Assembly: GCF_027942865.1 (NCBI RefSeq)
Contig: NC_134510.1
Span: 22,561,209 to 22,625,208, forward strand
Reading direction: 5' to 3'
Source of the DNA: Odontesthes bonariensis
Lineage: Eukaryota > Chordata > Actinopteri > Atheriniformes > Atherinopsidae
DNA length: 64,000 bases
Numbering within the stretch: position 1 is the stretch's first letter; each line of letters opens with the position of its first letter. A model generated the notes under the pieces. The model ran no database searches and was not told the DNA's origin. It was given only the letters and a program-made list of their open reading frames with translations. The position numbers and the translations under genes were made by a program. This document shows positions 42,640-52,800 of the stretch, piece by piece.

Positions 42640-42692
<53 letters not shown>

Positions 42693-43059
42693 TTTGACTG
42701 TGTAAAAGTTTAAATCTTATCAGGTTATTTTATTGTTATTTGTTGCCAAAAATGCTAATATTTCCTATGAGGAACAATGTCAATATAATCTAAAACTTAA
42801 ATAAATTCAAACAAATACTAAACAAAATAAAAACATTTTATCTTACTTGTTTTCTCTGCATTGCATTCCTGAGATCTTTATAGTATTGTTCATCTGCTTA
42901 ATATCAAAATGTTTTGCTTTGCTTCAATTTCACATTTGAAGCACCCCAAACTTGGTATTCCTTGTCCACCTCTCCCTCTTTCCACTGGTACTAGCATTAG
43001 CCTCCTCACCTCCATCAGTCTGCATATCTGCCTGCATCTGTCACTTCACCACTGCAGCG
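41571..43059. other. Repeat-rich gap between tmem276-like gene and kifc2
   Basis: No gene seen. It contains a T run at 42569-42590 and a (TTTC)n microsatellite. The open frames here lack coding character. Confidence 0.5.
42641..42695. repeat. (TTTC)n microsatellite
   Basis: About 13 tandem TTTC units, uninterrupted. Confidence 0.95.
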
Positions 43060-43874: not shown

Positions 43875-46800
43875 GTCTGACCCTTGTATATGATGGTGCT
43901 GTGCTCAGGAGCCTGGACCTGTTTCCATGGAAACAGGGAGCAAGAGGAGAGATGGCCACACCCCCAGAATGGGAAAAAAAGCTTGTGCTCGCTTTAGTGA
44001 ATCAAGTAAGTCAATAGAACAGGTGTATGACATCGGAATGATATATGTATCGTATAAATAGTTTCTAATGATTTATTGAATATTTGGCGCATACGGTTTT
44101 TTACTCTTTTGTTCATGTGATGTTATTCAGGCAGTAGCAGTGACAGTGATGAGCTGAGTGATGAAGATGAGGGTGATGCTTCAGACATCCCAGCATGCAC
44201 TCCTCTGGCTGCCTTTTTGACTTTCAAGCAAGAGGCTGAGAAGAGGAGAGCCTCCCAAGCTCATGTGGAAACAACAGGAAAGGTAACCAAAGTGGGTCAC
44301 CTCTGGCGCACTGCCCACCTGATGCAGCAGAGCAAAATAAATTTCAGCTCCCCAAATAGGCATTTGGCACTGATAATAAACTTTCTGCGTGTGCTTCTGT
44401 ACCACACAGTTGGCAGAGTCTCCCCTGGTGGCAGTGATGTCCCACTTGCTGAGTTTTCTGGAGCAGTACTCCCACTTCCAGCAGCTGCAGCAGCAAGCCG
44501 ACCAGTACCGGGTCCAGTTGAAGAGGCATCGCGTCCAGCACCGACGTCAGATGAAGGCCCTGCGGGCCTCCTATCGCCAGCATCTCCGGGACAAGAACAG
44601 CGTCATATGCAGTCTGGAGGAGGCCATCAGCCAGCAACAGAGCCCCAGCCCACTGAGTGAGGGTGAGCAGGAGGAGGAGGTGTGATAATGGGGGGAAGGG
44701 GGCAAAGGTGCAAGAGGGATGGGTTTCCATTCCCATGCTGTGTCTATAATGAAAAACAGAGAATTAAAGATCTTCCTCTGTATTCAAATGTAGATCAGAT
44801 GGTGTGAAAAGAAGCAGAATATTGCACATAGGACTAAATGTAGATTTATGATTGAAGGAAGATAAGTAAAGAAAGCCACTCTCTCATGCATGTTACAGTA
44901 GGTGAACTCCACAAGCTTACGTAATAAACATGAGAAAGGTTTGTGCTCTCACTCACAGTCGTGGAAGTCCAGAAATATTCCACCACTATCTAAAACCTGA
45001 GCTAAACGGGGGAGAATAATCTGTAGTGAAGGAGGAGTACAATGAACTATACATGAATATAAAGCTTGTTATAATTAATAAGTAACTGATGTGGTGTGTT
45101 TTTTCGATTATTTGTTTGTTTACCCAGTTTTAGTACTGGCACATACTGTTCCATCTTTTTGTAGACAGATTGAGTCATCAGCAGCAGAACAAACTGATTT
45201 GATTTATAGGGTGTTTGTGAGCTTTGCCATTAGTGATATCACAGAGACCAGACAGACCCTGTGCAGCTGCCGTAGACCTCAGAGCTTTAGATGTGTGTAT
45301 CTGTGGTGTTTCAGATTTAACCCAATAGCTCCTTCACCTCAGAGCAGAAGCCATCGACAGCACTGTAGCATCACTCACTGTTGGGCAGCCTGTTAACCCT
45401 CTAGACCCCAACAGAATTTTACAACAATGCTCCAGATTCCTGAGAATTCCGAAAGAAATGGGCAATTTGAGAAACATTTCAAATAACCAAGAATAACTTG
45501 AAAACTAATGACAAGTGTTCATTGCAAGTTTCTTTCTATTTAAAGATTGGAAATGGCTCTTTTAAATGATATGTGATCCATTAGGAATTATTCATTCATG
45601 TATTCATAGACGACCATTGAACTGTATCAAAAAGGATATTTTGAGACTGAACAAATATTCACTCCTCTTTTTAACTTGAAATGGATAGTTATAGTATTGT
45701 AGGCATATTTAAGTATTATTTTGCATAACATATCAACATATTGAGGTGTTTGTTTTTGATTCAAATTTGTTCAGTTAGCAACGCACGGCATATGATAGGC
45801 CTACAGAAGAAGAAGACATTTTGACTTGCGCCATCAGTCATTCAATCGCAGCGATGCGGACAAATGGACGGTCATATCGCGTAAGTAACCTGCTGATAAT
45901 AATGGGCCCAAGCCTGTATGACAGTCAAGTTTTTAACCGAAAAATGTCACGTTTATCTTGCTGTATCCACCGGTTGACCAATAAAAGTTTAAACAAATCT
46001 GATTTATCGTCAGACCCGTCGCTTTGCAGAAATGTTTGTATGCTAGTCGCCTACAACTGCAGCTGTTACTGGATTACCCAAAGCTATAACTGACGAAGTA
46101 TACATATAAATACCCGTACACTCATTCAGATATCGTATATAGGCACTAGAAGATGTGATAACAGTACAAAGACAGTAAACAAGTCATCTTTGAGTCATCA
46201 ATTGAGAGAAACAGCTAGCTAGCCCTCTCCATAGCACTGCCTGAAACGTGGTATACATCGTGGTTAGCACGAATAGCTAAACCTATGGTTTAGATTAGTG
46301 TATGTATTAAAAATGATTAGGGAAAGTGAGTTTATATTTGTCAATAACAAGTTTAATAATTTAAAAGATCAGAGTCAAAGCTTTTTTATTGTATACGTCA
46401 TATTTTTTATGTTATTCCTCAGATGAATTCTGAACAAAAGAGAAGTGCAGATACCGTATGTCCTAACAAGCAAGAAAATAAAACTTACAAAAAGGTGAGT
46501 TTCCCATATAATTCTACATGTTATAATATAATGTCAACTATTTAATTTAATTTAATTTTAGTTAACTTTTCAAGATGTTGAAAACCTATATATACAAATA
46601 TTTATACCTCCTCTCCCTCTGCTTCCAGATGCAAGACTCTACAGCATCCCATGAAACTCATAAAAACAGGATCCTGTTTTACACAATGGGACAACACAAG
46701 TGGAGCACCCAAACGATGTCTCCACACATCTCCCACTTTCAGCTCTTCCAGTCTTGCAACTGACACAGCCCCTTTTTCGTCCAGAAAAACGCACAAGGTC

Positions 46801-49800
46801 ATGCCCCGCCTTCAAGTTTCTTGTCACAAGTCTCTCCACTGTGCCAGATGCAAGACCCTTTGCCCCTCTCGTTTTGGAACTAAACCCATCACAAAGCTCA
46901 TGGATGAGCATCAACTTATAGGCCTTTAGTGACCAGGACTTCCTATTTTTGGGAAGTGGCTTCTGTTGGAGCACCCACACTGTATATGAATTTACAACGG
47001 CAATGTTCAACATGCCTCCTCTCCCTCTGCTTCCTCCTCTTCCTCTGCCTCCTCTCCCTCTGCTTCCTCTGCCTCCTTCTCTTCCTCTGCCTCCTCTCCC
47101 TCTGCTTCCTCTGCCTCCTTCTCTTCCTCTGCCTCCTCTCCCTCTGCTTCCTTCTCTTCCTCTGCCTCCTCTCCCTCTGCTTCCTTCTCTTCCTCTGCCT
47201 CCTCTCCCTCTGCTTCCTCCTCTCCCTCTGCTTCCTCTGCCTCCTCCTCTTCCTCTGCCTCCTCTCCCTCTGCTTCCTCCTCTTCCTCTGCCTCCTCTCC
47301 CTCTGCTTCCTCCTCTTCCTCTGCCTCCTCTCCCTCTGCTTCCTCCTCTCCCTCTGCTTCCTCTGCCTCCTCCTCTTCCTCTGCCTCCTCTCCCTCTGCT
47401 TCCTCCTCTTCCTCTGCCTCCTCTCCCTCTGCTTCCTCTGCCTCCTCCTCTCCCTCTGCCTCCTCTCCCTCTGCTTCCTCCTCTTCCTCTGCCTCCTCTC
47501 CCTCTGCTCCCTCCTCTCCCTCTGCTTCCTCCTCTCCCTCTGCTTCCTCCTCTTCCTCTGCCTCCTCTCCCTCTGCTTCCTCCTCTTCCTCTGCCTCCTC
47601 TCCCTCTGCCTCCTCTCCCTCTGCTTCCTCTGCCTCCTCTCCCTCTGCCTCCTCTCCCTCTGCTTCCTCTGCCTCCTCTCCCTCTGCCTCCTCTCCCTCT
47701 GCTTCCTCTGCCTCCTCTCCCTCTGCTTTCCAGGGAAAGGGCTCCGAAAGCAATGTTTTCCAACCATGTGAATGTGACATGGCTATTCTGAACGACTTCA
47801 GTAATAATAAAATGAGAGTAAAGCGAATGTAATGAAACTTGTTTTTATTGAAATTCAGTGTAATTTCCCCCCTCACCCCCTGCCATATACACACACGCCT
47901 ACATGTAATGTAAAGCGACCTTGGGTATCTTGAAAAGCGCTATATATTATATTATATATTATTATTATTATTATATATAATATATTATTATTATATATAA
48001 GTTATTATTGTTATTATTATTATTATTATAGACGATAGGCTATAATGCAGAGAAATAGGGGCAGCTATTTGGTAACCTTCCTCAGAGAAAAAAAGTTTGG
48101 GCCCACTTCAGAACTTCACTACAGTACCATGACAAGACTAACAAACAATTTTCCACAAAATGTATTAAGTATTTCAAATACGTTTGCACAATTACATTTA
48201 TAAGATCGAGTTGATCATAGTCTAACTCTGGCAACCTAAATGCTGGGGCTATCACTCGGTGGACGAATGATGGGGACAGGTCCGGTTTGAAATTCTCGCA
48301 TTATAATCAGGCACGACATCACTTGAAATGTTTGTTGATAGGCGCCTTACATAAACTGGGAAATATGTGTAGGCTACTTATACCAGGCAGGTAGTTAGAT
48401 TACCAGTAGCAAACAAGGAGTTAGACTTTAAAAAAAATCTACAGTTTCGTTTGACATTTCCTCTCCGGAGTTCAGCGTTTCGAGTTGCTCTTGCTAGCAC
48501 TGTCACTGGATTACATCGCTACAATAAGGAAGGACTTGGATTTGGAAATTATTACAACTATTACTACTATTTCGGGATCTTCAATGGTAACCAACAGATA
48601 AGGTAATGATCATCATCATCTTTGCTTTATTATCTCTTAGTTTAGGTGTAGTCTGTATGCTCTGTTGAAGGACACTGACCGGCAAGCTCGCAAATAACTA
48701 ACGATAAATCAGCTGGCGTTAGCATGGCTAATCAAAACGGCTGTAGGTGACAAGGTTGGCCACTTCGTCTCAAATTTAGGTTGTAAATATATCTAAATCA
48801 CATTTACAATTTACGTTAGTGTCACTGAAATCCGAGTCGGACAATTGCGAACCGGTGCAAATTGCCAACGTCTCAAGGTAAACATCCACAGTCTTTTCGG
48901 AGCTGTCATTTTCTTGAATTGAGTGGCTGAGGTAATCGAGTGATAATGAACGAAGCTGGTAGCTACAAAGTAATACTTGGCACACTGCGGCGGGAAATAT
49001 TAAACAAAGGAAGTATAATTGTAGCTCGTGAAGCTGGCCCAAACGCAGAACCTCCGTTCTCATATCAGTCTCAACTGCGGCCAAGAGAAATCCCTCAAAA
49101 ACATGACAATATCTCGAAATAATTTAATACAAACATATATATTTTAATACAACAATTTGTTCATTAAGCAGTTGTGAACTAGTGAAGTGTGTAGTTACAG
49201 TTCAGAAACATCATTTTCCCGTAGTAAGACGAGTATTTTCATGCCGGCCGGCGGTGGCCGCTATGGGAGAATAAAGAACGGCCGGCAACGGCCGCTATGG
49301 GGTCTAGAGGGTTAACAGGTGCCATGAAACCATAGGCAGATCTCTGAACGTATGATGACTGATGATTCCACAGGGATATATGTCAATATGTATGATCTCA
49401 TATATATATGATTACCCAGTTCAGGTCAATGACATTTCCATATGGGAGATCATTTGAGCAGAGGATCTCTGCTTAAATGTTGCATGACAGCATGACTCAC
49501 ATTAGTTGCTGGGTAAGGATACAAGAGCGTGTGAGGAGAGTCTTCAGTATGTGGGTAACGACTCTGTGACTCTCTGATATGAATAAAACATAGTCTGTTA
49601 GTGCTGTTTTATGTGTAGCAAATGCACTTACAAGGTCTGGCACATGCTGGCCAGCACGTGTAAACGTGTTGGACTGAAAATAGCCTGAGGTCCTTGTCCC
49701 AGTGTTACTAAGCTGTTTGGGTTGTTTGTTAGCTGCAACGCAAAAATGAAGAACTGAGTGATACTTAGCTTCATGAACATGCAGCGTGTTCGTCACTTTT

Positions 49801-52800
49801 CTACTTGGCTGTGATGAATGGTTTATGCAACATTTTTATTTTCTTGCATTGCTGATGTCTGAAAATTTTCAGTGCTATTTCAGTGTTTTCCGCAGAGGGA
49901 TGATGCATAGCTGCCTCCTCTCCATTTTTTCCAACCTTTCTGGCATCACCACCTCTACCCGCAGCACTGTGACACCGCAAACCTGACACGCTGTGTTGAT
50001 AAATTTAGTCCTGCAATGAATATCAAAGGTGACAGAGCCTGGTAAATCATTGAGGGGGAGGAAAATGTTGTTTATTGTCAAAAATGGAGGTTTTAGAAGG
50101 TTGTTCCAACTTGTACATGTGAATCAGGGTTTTTGCATGTGATGGGCTGCAGTAATCCTATTGAGGTCTTTAAATGCAGGAGCAATAATGTTAACCTAAC
50201 TGCACAATGCAGTGACTACATGGTTTATGTAAGAGCTTGACAGTATGTGCATATCTAATCATCAATAATATTACCCTCACAAGTGTTCTGTGGAAAATGC
50301 TCTTAAATGAAAGGGTTACATATGGGTCATGAACTATGATTGCCCGATTATGAACGTGGTTGCAGACATGGCTGAATATGTTTGAGGTATTGTCATAACA
50401 GTATCCACATGGTTAGAAAAGAGGTTATTTTTATATTTATATTTATATTTATTTTTGTTGTCCCCCAGGTGAGTCTAGCAGTGATGGAGGGGCACAAGCT
50501 GGGGTTCACAGGCTGGTTGAGTCTCTGTATGGCCTGCAGGGCGAGAGGAGTAAACTGAGAGGAGAACTCCGTCTGCTGCACTCGCAGCTGGAGCAGAAAG
50601 AAAGAGACAGACACTCACGTATACAAGCCTTTCAACTGCAGGTAGACCACTGCTTTTTAGTTTATCTATACTGTAACGGACAGACACATTTACGATACAA
50701 GTAAATCTTTAAGAAAAAGTACATTATGGTTCTCACATGTTATGTTAGTACATAAATGCAAATGTTGAAAAACTGCTGTGACTCTGTGTGGTCCATCCAA
50801 CACTGCCATTTTGGCTAAAGCTCTCTTTTAAAAAAGATAATGTATCTTTATTTAAAAAAACGTTACAAAGACAAGATTTAAATCTGACAATTTCACATAA
50901 ATCTGCAGATAATTGTAGGCGGGAGCCTTACAAAGATTTCAGCCAGATGTTTAACTGCTCCAATTTCTCACAGATTGATGAGCTGAAGAGCTGCATAGAA
51001 GAGCGTGAAGAGGAGCTGTCAAGGCTGAAGACAGCCACTGTGAGTCATGCAAGCTATTGATTTCACCATTTGTCAAGTGTTTTCCTGCCACCAGTTAAGC
51101 TGCCACACGACTAAATTAAAAATAGAGCTGTAAATGCCAAGAAGCGCTCATCTCGCCATATACAACACCTTAAATATAATGTGATGGTGAAACACGTGTT
51201 ATTGTTTTCACTTTTTGTCTTAATGTCTTGCTTTAGCTCAGCCTTATGCTTAATTTCCTCAGGGGGCCACAGACTCAGAGAAACGAGTGCTGTGTTTGTC
51301 AGCGGAGAACGAGAGCCTGAAGCAGAACCTGAGCGTTACACAAGGCCTCCTGCAGCAGCTCTCAGCCATCCCGTCGCAGTCCAGCACCATGCTCATCAAG
51401 GTGAGAGGCATCAGCACAGCTCACTGGTGTACCATTCCGCCAAACATCAGAGTATACCTGTAATTTACTTTTATTTGACATGGTAGGAGAATGAGACTCT
51501 CCGTAGCAGAGTGCAGCAGCTGGAGAGCTCCCTTCAACAGCGTGCTGAGCAGCTTTCACAGCTGGAGCGAAAGAGTGAACAAAGTGAGTGGAGGAGAGGA
51601 GAGGAGCTGAGGAAACGCGAGGACAGAGTGAGGGAACTGCAGCTGGAGCTGGATAGAGAGAGAGGCAAGGAGCCAGTTGTTAAGGTAAATCACCTATATT
51701 TTCATGTACTGTGTAGAATTGTGTTTCGGGCATATTGACCATTTCTTTTTGTGCTTTCAACAAAGAAACTCTAATTAGATTTTGATCTGTTGTCTGCTAG
51801 TATGTCACCCAGACTGTGCAGGTGGAATCACCTGCCACAATAAAGCATTTGACGAAAGCCAGACAGAGGAACGAGGTGTTGTCTGAGAGGCTGTCCAATC
51901 AGAATGAGCGGTGCAAACATCTGGAGGAACAGATCAGGAAGTCGGATGAACACAGCTGTAATCTGCAGCACAAGGTAATAAAAGGAGGCAACGAGACTCA
52001 TTTTAGCGCAAAGTCTTATCTTTCAATGTGCTTTCAAGTACACATACATATGAACTACTAATTACAGTTGTATGATATGTGAACTGTGTTTTTAAATGTT
52101 TGTTTTTTGTTTGTCTGGAAACACTGCAAAACCCAGGCTACAGAAATGTTTACATAAATGAAACATAATCTGGGCTTTTGTAGGCAAGGCTAAATATCCA
52201 TCAGGACAAACATTTATGTGGGCCGCCAGCCACCAACAATCAAAAATATGGAGACAATCTCCTGATGCTCCTACTTATTGGGAATAAAAATAGATAGAAC
52301 TGTCAAGTGGAGATGGGTAAACAAGGCCCACTCTCTTCAGAGAACAAATAGTCAAAGGAGAGAAAATGAAAAGCAAAAGGAAGATGTTTCCACCTGGGGT
52401 ACCAGAAATTCTAACTCAGATTCAGTTTAATTGACAGATTAACTAATTACAGAGCTGAACCTGCTCAAGCTCACAGACTGACAAACACCTTTTACAGATT
52501 GCAGCATATGAGCGAGAAATCAGCAAACTGAGAGAGGAACTGTTGAAGGAGATCAGCCACTTGGAGGAGAGGAAGGAGGAGGCGGTAAAGGCTGCTGCCA
52601 GCTGCTCAGCCGAACACTTCCAGAACCTGCAGGACCAATTCTTCAGTGAGTCGACGAGTTACTGAACCTCCAGGGGAGGAAACCAAGACATTTAACAGAA
52701 TTAGAGTGTGTTTCTTCATGTTTTTCTTCTCTTTGTCAGCCTTGCAGAAGCGCCTGACAGCACTTCCACCGACTTTACGCTCCATGAAGACAGACTACAC

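What the first reader, a model, noticed from the sequence alone, without database searches (positions are those of the whole stretch)
45393..49315. Complete-ended piggyBac copy whose transposase region has been overrun by a minisatellite
The 14-bp terminal repeats and both TTAA duplications are perfect, which suggests a fairly recent insertion. Yet the coding part is reduced to the zinc-binding C-terminus, which runs into 0.7 kb of tandem polypyrimidine units. Either a non-autonomous derivative with an internal array was mobilised, or the array grew after insertion. It accounts for 3919 of 5806 bp of kifc2 intron 4.
Basis: partly seen in the sequence, partly recalled or inferred. Interest (0 to 1): 0.7.

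Follow-up and report, generated by a model that had tools for sequence, protein, structure and literature searches.

The report
Jumping gene's own arginine-glycine repeat, overgrown
A mobile DNA element in an intron of a kinesin gene has lost its enzyme core and start codon, and what looked like an invading satellite array is a roughly fourfold overgrown copy of an arginine-glycine repeat that intact relatives carry inside the enzyme that moves them.

Summary
In detail: a piggyBac copy with perfect 14-bp inverted repeats and TTAA on both sides fills 3919 of 5806 bp of an intron of a KIFC2/KIFC3-class kinesin gene. It keeps only the transposase C-terminus, beside a 716-bp polypyrimidine array. 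The interpretation changes: the array did not overrun the transposase, it is part of it. Four relatives elsewhere in the genome have open 586-597-aa transposases with all three catalytic aspartates and, before the core, an arginine-glycine (RGG) tract encoded by the same 33-bp unit. They are identical in protein outside the tract but differ in its length (50, 55, 55, 61 aa). Over eight relatives it is 9-61 aa; the window copy has 237 aa with 34 RGG. A second family (59% aa identity) also has an acidic, then RG-rich N-terminus. In the window copy the catalytic domain, acidic N-terminus and start codon are deleted up to both edges of the array. Each deletion junction was found once in the 945-Mb genome, so no spread of this form is seen. 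Most likely it is a private derivative made by faulty synthesis through the RGG-coding repeat, young (about 0.4-0.6% private change). Whether the array grew before or after insertion is unsettled.

The parts
45393..45396 (.). TTAA target duplication, left
45397..45410 (+). 14-bp terminal inverted repeat, left (CCCTCTAGACCCCA)
46639..47016 (-). Transposase C-terminal remnant (125 codons from GMLNIA to the end, plus stop; cysteine-rich region), 96% identical to intact relatives; two codons missing between cysteines of the zinc-binding part
47013..47016 (-). Deletion junction 1: array joined in frame to codon GGC of GMLNIA; GGCA could come from either side (by eye); about 1.1 kb of catalytic domain missing here; one match in genome
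47013..47728 (-). Expanded RGG-coding array (coding strand is minus; 34 RGG in the fused frame)
47726..47732 (-). Deletion junction 2: array joined to the 5' untranslated sequence; acidic N-terminus, ATG and the pyrimidine-rich TTTTAG before it missing; one match in genome
46639..47844 (-). 401-codon stop-free frame through array and C-terminus; no ATG before the array. That the array is open is trivial because its coding strand has no T
47732..49297 (-). 5' non-coding part of the element (with the end repeat 98.3% identical to L013, 1535 of 1562 aligned bases)
49298..49311 (-). 14-bp terminal inverted repeat, right
49312..49315 (.). TTAA target duplication, right
44663..50468 (+). Host intron (5806 bp) of a KIFC2/KIFC3-class kinesin gene; element lies antisense to the gene

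Best explanation
This is an internally deleted, non-autonomous copy of a recently active piggyBac family. Its autonomous members encode a transposase whose N-terminus is an acidic stretch followed by an RGG tract. The RGG tract is encoded by a 33-bp minisatellite whose length differs between copies. In this copy the C-terminal side of the array is joined to the C-terminal coding part, so the catalytic domain is gone; the other side is joined to the 5' untranslated sequence, so the acidic N-terminus and ATG are gone; and the repeat is about four times longer. Interrupted gap repair through the repeat after excision of a full-length parent is the single cause I think most likely. Shown: origin of the array, both deletions, the expansion, single matches of both junctions, intact ends, open relatives. 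Inferred: gap repair as the cause (about 0.4), one event rather than several, mobility in trans. The confidence below is for the shown part read as one account: own RGG repeat, expanded, in an internally deleted copy.
For: Four relatives carry open 591, 586, 591 and 597-aa frames; the three tested score 302.6-302.7 bits to DDE_Tnp_1_7; L009 aligns to piggyBat and piggyBac with aspartates at the places published as catalytic. Their RGG tract is in frame with a 33-bp period, 146-179 bp in the three copies run. 447 of 716 window-array bases lie in exact 33-mers of the L009 array, against mean 0.4 and maximum 38 in 200 codon shuffles and 0 for the reversed array. Outside the array the copy is 1.3-1.7% from the four. 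The C-terminal coding piece has 10 matches in the genome, 10 of 10 candidates scored, all looked at: only the window has this structure. Each junction pattern, up to 2 mismatches, has 1 match and 0 for its reversed control. Another copy (L061) lost the catalytic domain on its own, from about 40 bp beyond its RGG tract.
Against: Gap repair leaves no certain mark; junction 1 shares 4 bases and junction 2 hardly any (by eye), which fits several end-joining or slippage routes. The deletions and the expansion may be separate events. 269 of 716 array bases are not in exact 33-mers of the L009 array, so the array has diverged or came from a somewhat different parent. The widespread short forms (24 of 40 copies looked at) have breakpoints elsewhere, not at the array.
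Confidence: 0.85

Rival explanations
1. The deletion and array were already there when the element moved into the intron (a derivative with an internal array was mobilised).
For: Ends and TTAA are perfect, so the copy could have arrived in this form. Short derivatives of the family did spread: 24 of the 40 best 5'-end hits share one deletion. Cut-and-paste movement leaves no donor, so a single copy does not speak against one move.
Against: No second copy: each junction has one match in the genome, so no spread lineage; the widespread short forms lack the array.
Confidence: 0.35
2. A full-length copy inserted first, then lost its core and expanded its array in place in the intron.
For: Single matches of both junctions; an exact 126-bp tandem duplication inside the array fits some late growth.
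Against: Nothing dates the deletions relative to insertion; only about 0.4-0.6% private change has accumulated (three-taxon arithmetic), which leaves little time.
Confidence: 0.45
3. A minisatellite from outside arose in or invaded the transposase gene.
For: The array is a typical tandem repeat with 0 T on one strand.
Against: The same kind of tract is in frame at the same place in 8 other copies of the family, 9-61 aa, and an RG-rich tract sits at the corresponding place in a second family.
Confidence: 0.03
4. The copy encodes a working RGG plus zinc-binding protein that represses the family, like truncated repressor forms of other DNA transposons (recalled).
For: Junction 1 keeps the frame.
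Against: No ATG before the array, the sequence just before the original ATG lost, two codons missing between cysteines; keeping the frame has a one-in-three chance and the array cannot hold a stop codon.
Confidence: 0.03

Closest known systems
piggyBac and piggyBat transposases (solved chains 6x67_C, 9c0f_C)
   Same: Core with three aspartates; C-terminal part aligns to piggyBat; TTAA targets.
   Different: N-termini of the superfamily are described as non-conserved and predicted disordered (PMC11707139, passages); here that region carries a repeat-encoded RGG tract of 9-61 aa. The passages on piggyBat hold no RGG (0 occurrences in that paper).
Pokey (piggyBac superfamily, Daphnia)
   Same: piggyBac-type element whose copies differ in length mostly through an internal repeat (PMC3849761, passages).
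   Different: Pokey's repeats are about 200 bp, come from the rDNA spacer and lie in the 5' non-coding region; here the repeat is 33 bp and codes for part of the transposase.
Internal-deletion derivatives and MITEs of cut-and-paste transposons
   Same: Ends kept, transposase core lost; in this family 24 of 40 copies looked at share one such deletion.
   Different: That common short form drops the repeat; this copy keeps and expands it and has no sibling.
MITE with a minisatellite in Porphyromonas gingivalis (PMC4596501, search listing only)
   Same: A minisatellite inside a non-autonomous element.
   Different: Bacterial; whether its repeat comes from a transposase gene was not read.
RG/RGG-repeat proteins (Nucleolin and GAR1 homologs, PMC9633708, search listing only)
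   Same: RG/RGG repeats.
   Different: The listing describes nucleolar and P-granule proteins; RNA binding and localisation were not tested here.

Membership tests
piggyBac superfamily (element) | TTAA target duplication | tested here: met
   Both sides of the window copy; TTAA at both ends of 11 of 12 further copies whose two ends were printed, the twelfth (L027) has TTAT at one end
piggyBac superfamily (element) | Short terminal inverted repeats starting with a motif such as CCCTC | tested here: met
   14 of 14 bp in the window; 13 of 14 in the four open relatives. CCCTC is among four conserved start motifs in PMC10813416 (passages)
piggyBac superfamily (autonomous relatives) | DDE_Tnp_1_7 core with D-D-D and GGVDxxD | tested here: met
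piggyBac superfamily (the window copy as an autonomous member) | Catalytic core present | tested here: not met
   All three aspartates lie in the deleted part; it is a non-autonomous derivative
piggyBac superfamily (autonomous relatives) | C-terminal cysteine-rich domain | tested here: inconclusive
   zf-Tnp_2 found but under its cut-off; aligns to piggyBat up to its residue 574
RGG-box protein (autonomous relatives) | Clustered RGG/RG repeats in the reading frame | tested here: met
   7-9 RGG in 50-61 aa of the four open copies
RGG-box protein (autonomous relatives) | RNA or G-quadruplex binding, condensate or nucleolar targeting | not testable with these tools
   needs protein experiments
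Spread non-autonomous lineage (MITE-like) | Several copies sharing the same internal junctions | tested here: not met
   1 match for each junction, up to 2 mismatches

The most novel reading that the evidence does not exclude
A clade of fish piggyBac transposases uses a minisatellite-encoded RGG tract as a length-tunable module (RNA or G-quadruplex binding, nuclear condensates or autoinhibition), so that slippage in the DNA keeps producing transposase variants of different activity, and the same repeat is a weak point at which copies lose their core and become non-autonomous. The window copy would be the extreme product of that built-in instability.
Probability: 0.2. Interest if true: 0.75.

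Novelty: new variant of a known kind. Interest (0 to 1): 0.5.

Why it matters
N-termini of piggyBac transposases are described as disordered and non-conserved, and predicted phosphorylation there restrains activity (PMC11707139, passages). A family in which four otherwise identical transposases differ only in the length of an RGG tract is a natural length series for testing what such a tract does. It also shows how a coding repeat of a transposase can look like an invading satellite once the rest of the gene is gone.

Tried and rejected
Minisatellite from outside: rejected, because the repeat is coding in relatives. Spread array-bearing lineage: not supported. The 401-codon open frame as a sign of coding: rejected, because the array's coding strand has no T. 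Rfam at gathering threshold: 0 matches in the window. Relatives of the transposase in viral contigs: 3 pattern matches, none confirmed. Structure prediction never ran. The empty intron in related fish could not be compared. In the distance table the L010 row of the left part is inflated by an insertion and was not used.

Papers: eight searches, seen as listings: 7 of 7 listed; 15 of 336; 20 of 25; 5 of 6; 0 papers; 10 of 15; 2 of 2; 12 of 57. Passages seen of PMC3849761, PMC2533014, PMC10813416 and PMC11707139; abstract and section list of PMC2872659, which proved not to bear on the array. In the listings no title or abstract start names an RGG tract in a piggyBac transposase; unlisted hits and most subscription journals were not seen.

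Full report
What is there. The window holds a piggyBac element at 45393-49315, with TTAA on both sides and perfect 14-bp inverted repeats. It lies antisense in a 5806-bp intron, 44663-50468, of a C-terminal-type kinesin gene. Of four exon pieces downstream, three pass Pfam's kinesin cut-off and the fourth passes that of the related Microtub_bd model. The closest solved chain to one of them is KIFC3. Inside the element, on the minus strand, are 125 codons of transposase C-terminus and a 716-bp array, 47013-47728.

Relatives in the same genome. The genome held for this window has 945 Mb in 187 contigs. The left 208 bp have 40 matches including the window itself, at 98-100% identity (40 scored of 86 candidates, so a lower bound). 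The other 39 were fetched, 20 as 8-9 kb and 19 as about 1.9 kb pieces, two of these extended (sorted). Twenty-four of the 40 share one internal deletion that removes the whole transposase with its array; five of these with two clean ends are 1.7-1.9 kb long. Five of 40 show a second deletion type (in L026 only one side was seen). Three of 40 are other short or unclear forms (L028, L033, L034). Seven of 40 carry transposase sequence (L009-L013, L044, L046), and one is the window copy. The right 206 bp match about 40 places including the window (40 of 97 candidates scored).

The array is part of the transposase. Four copies on contigs C22, C12, C3 and C2 (L009, L011, L012, L013) are 4678-4705 bp long with open frames of 591, 586, 591 and 597 aa. 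L009 aligns to piggyBat (E 1.1e-49) and piggyBac (4.4e-39) over the core, with aspartates at the places published as D268, D346 and D447. The first 33 residues are acidic (net charge -14 in L009), followed by an RGG tract (net +21 in L009), then the core. The tract is encoded by a 33-bp repeat. The four proteins are identical in the 33 residues before and the 503 after the tract, but the tract is 55, 50, 55 and 61 aa long. Their DNA differs by 0.06-0.36% in the left 1.67 kb, which includes the C-terminal coding part, and by 0-0.23% in the right 1.29 kb. A fifth copy, L044/L048, is open over 567 aa with a 30-aa tract. Three copies with damaged genes have tracts of 26 (L046/L049), 9 (L060) and 20 aa (L061); in L010 the part that would hold the tract is missing. 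The window copy has 237 aa with 34 RGG in the fused frame.

Is the resemblance of the arrays more than composition? 447 of 716 bases of the window array lie in exact 33-mers of the L009 array; 200 codon-shuffled arrays gave mean 0.4 and maximum 38, and the reversed array gave 0. With 24-mers it is 648 against mean 9.0 and maximum 89. The 269 bases not covered by 33-mers show that the array has variants of its own. It also holds an exact 126-bp tandem duplication.

What was lost. On the C-terminal side the array runs into GGC-ATG of GMLNIA, residue 471 of L013; GGCA could come from either side and the frame is kept (the shared bases read by eye). About 1.1 kb of catalytic coding sequence is missing there. 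On the other side the array joins the 5' untranslated sequence; the acidic N-terminus, the ATG and the pyrimidine-rich TTTTAG just before it are gone. That this TTTTAG is a splice acceptor is my inference. Two codons are also missing between cysteines of the zinc-binding part. So the copy makes no working transposase. The long open frame through the array means nothing by itself, because the array's coding strand has no T and so no stop codon in any of its three frames.

How many like it. The C-terminal coding piece has 10 matches in the genome, 10 of 10 candidates scored: the window, the four open copies, L010, L044, L046, and two seen only there, C26 (L060) and C19 (L061). None but the window has these junctions, and patterns over junction 1 and junction 2 with up to 2 mismatches each matched once, with 0 matches to the reversed control. 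L061 shows a separate loss of the catalytic domain, from about 40 bp beyond its RGG tract into the C-terminal coding part. Against a general rule, the common short forms have their breakpoints elsewhere.

Age. The window copy differs from the four by 1.3-1.7% outside the array. The older copy L046/L049 is nearer to the window copy (3.0% left, 2.0% right) than to the four (3.5-3.8% left, 2.5-2.9% right), so part of the difference lies on the branch of the four. Three-taxon arithmetic, with L046/L049 or L044/L048 as the third, gives about 0.4-0.6% private change for the window copy. No clock rate was applied.

A second family. Three loci match the core DNA at 68-69%. The one with an open frame of 596 codons (L064) is 59% identical in protein to L009 over 584 aligned positions, and it too has an acidic stretch followed by an RG-rich tract (37 aa, 9 RG, 2 RGG). 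L063 shows the same; in the listed frames of L062 that end is absent. So the acidic-then-RG layout is older than this family. At DNA level the tract of L064 is only a weak repeat of period 6 or 18. The genome has 116 places matching the Pfam model (116 scored of 1328 candidates); whether the other families have an RG tract could not be read.

How it probably works. The autonomous copies move by cut and paste (established for the superfamily). Their gene carries a purine-rich repeat whose length differs even between near-identical copies. When a copy is excised and the gap is refilled from the sister strand, synthesis through the repeat can slip, stop or jump. In this copy that would have produced a fourfold longer repeat and lost DNA on both sides of it. 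This chain is inference; the anatomy is shown. Whether it happened before or after the element reached this intron is open: one copy fits both. The ends and more than 1 kb of sub-terminal sequence on each side are kept, so transposase from the relatives could still move it (inference, not tested).

What the tract does is open. piggyBac N-termini are described as predicted disordered and non-conserved, with predicted phosphorylation sites that hold activity down (PMC11707139, passages). No title or abstract start listed names an RGG tract in a piggyBac transposase, and one search found no paper; these listings are partial. A repeat that changes the length of a piggyBac element is known from Pokey, but there it is non-coding (PMC3849761, passages).

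Noticed in passing
L009 3-1018 and 5706-8945; L011 1-3116 and 7787-9001: Two of the four open copies sit inside tandem satellites, one with unit GTTAAAGA (a TTAA in its consensus unit) and one with a 166-bp unit.
   Followed up: no
genome G000: The genome holds at least 116 matches to the piggyBac transposase model, many with long open frames, so several families may be recently active.
   Followed up: partly
L063, L064: A second piggyBac family (L064 59% identical in protein to L009) has the same acidic then RG-rich N-terminus.
   Followed up: partly
L061 (G000:C19:8312400-8316000): Another copy lost its catalytic domain separately, from about 40 bp beyond its RGG tract.
   Followed up: partly
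terminal repeats of L009, L011, L012, L013: The four open copies have one mismatch between their 14-bp end repeats, whereas the disabled window copy is perfect.
   Followed up: no
RGG tracts are longer (50-61 aa) in the four near-identical copies than in the four more diverged ones (9-30 aa); growth in the active line or shrinkage in old copies are both possible.
   Followed up: no
window 42641-42693: A perfect run of TCTT, 13 copies, upstream of the intron.
   Followed up: no
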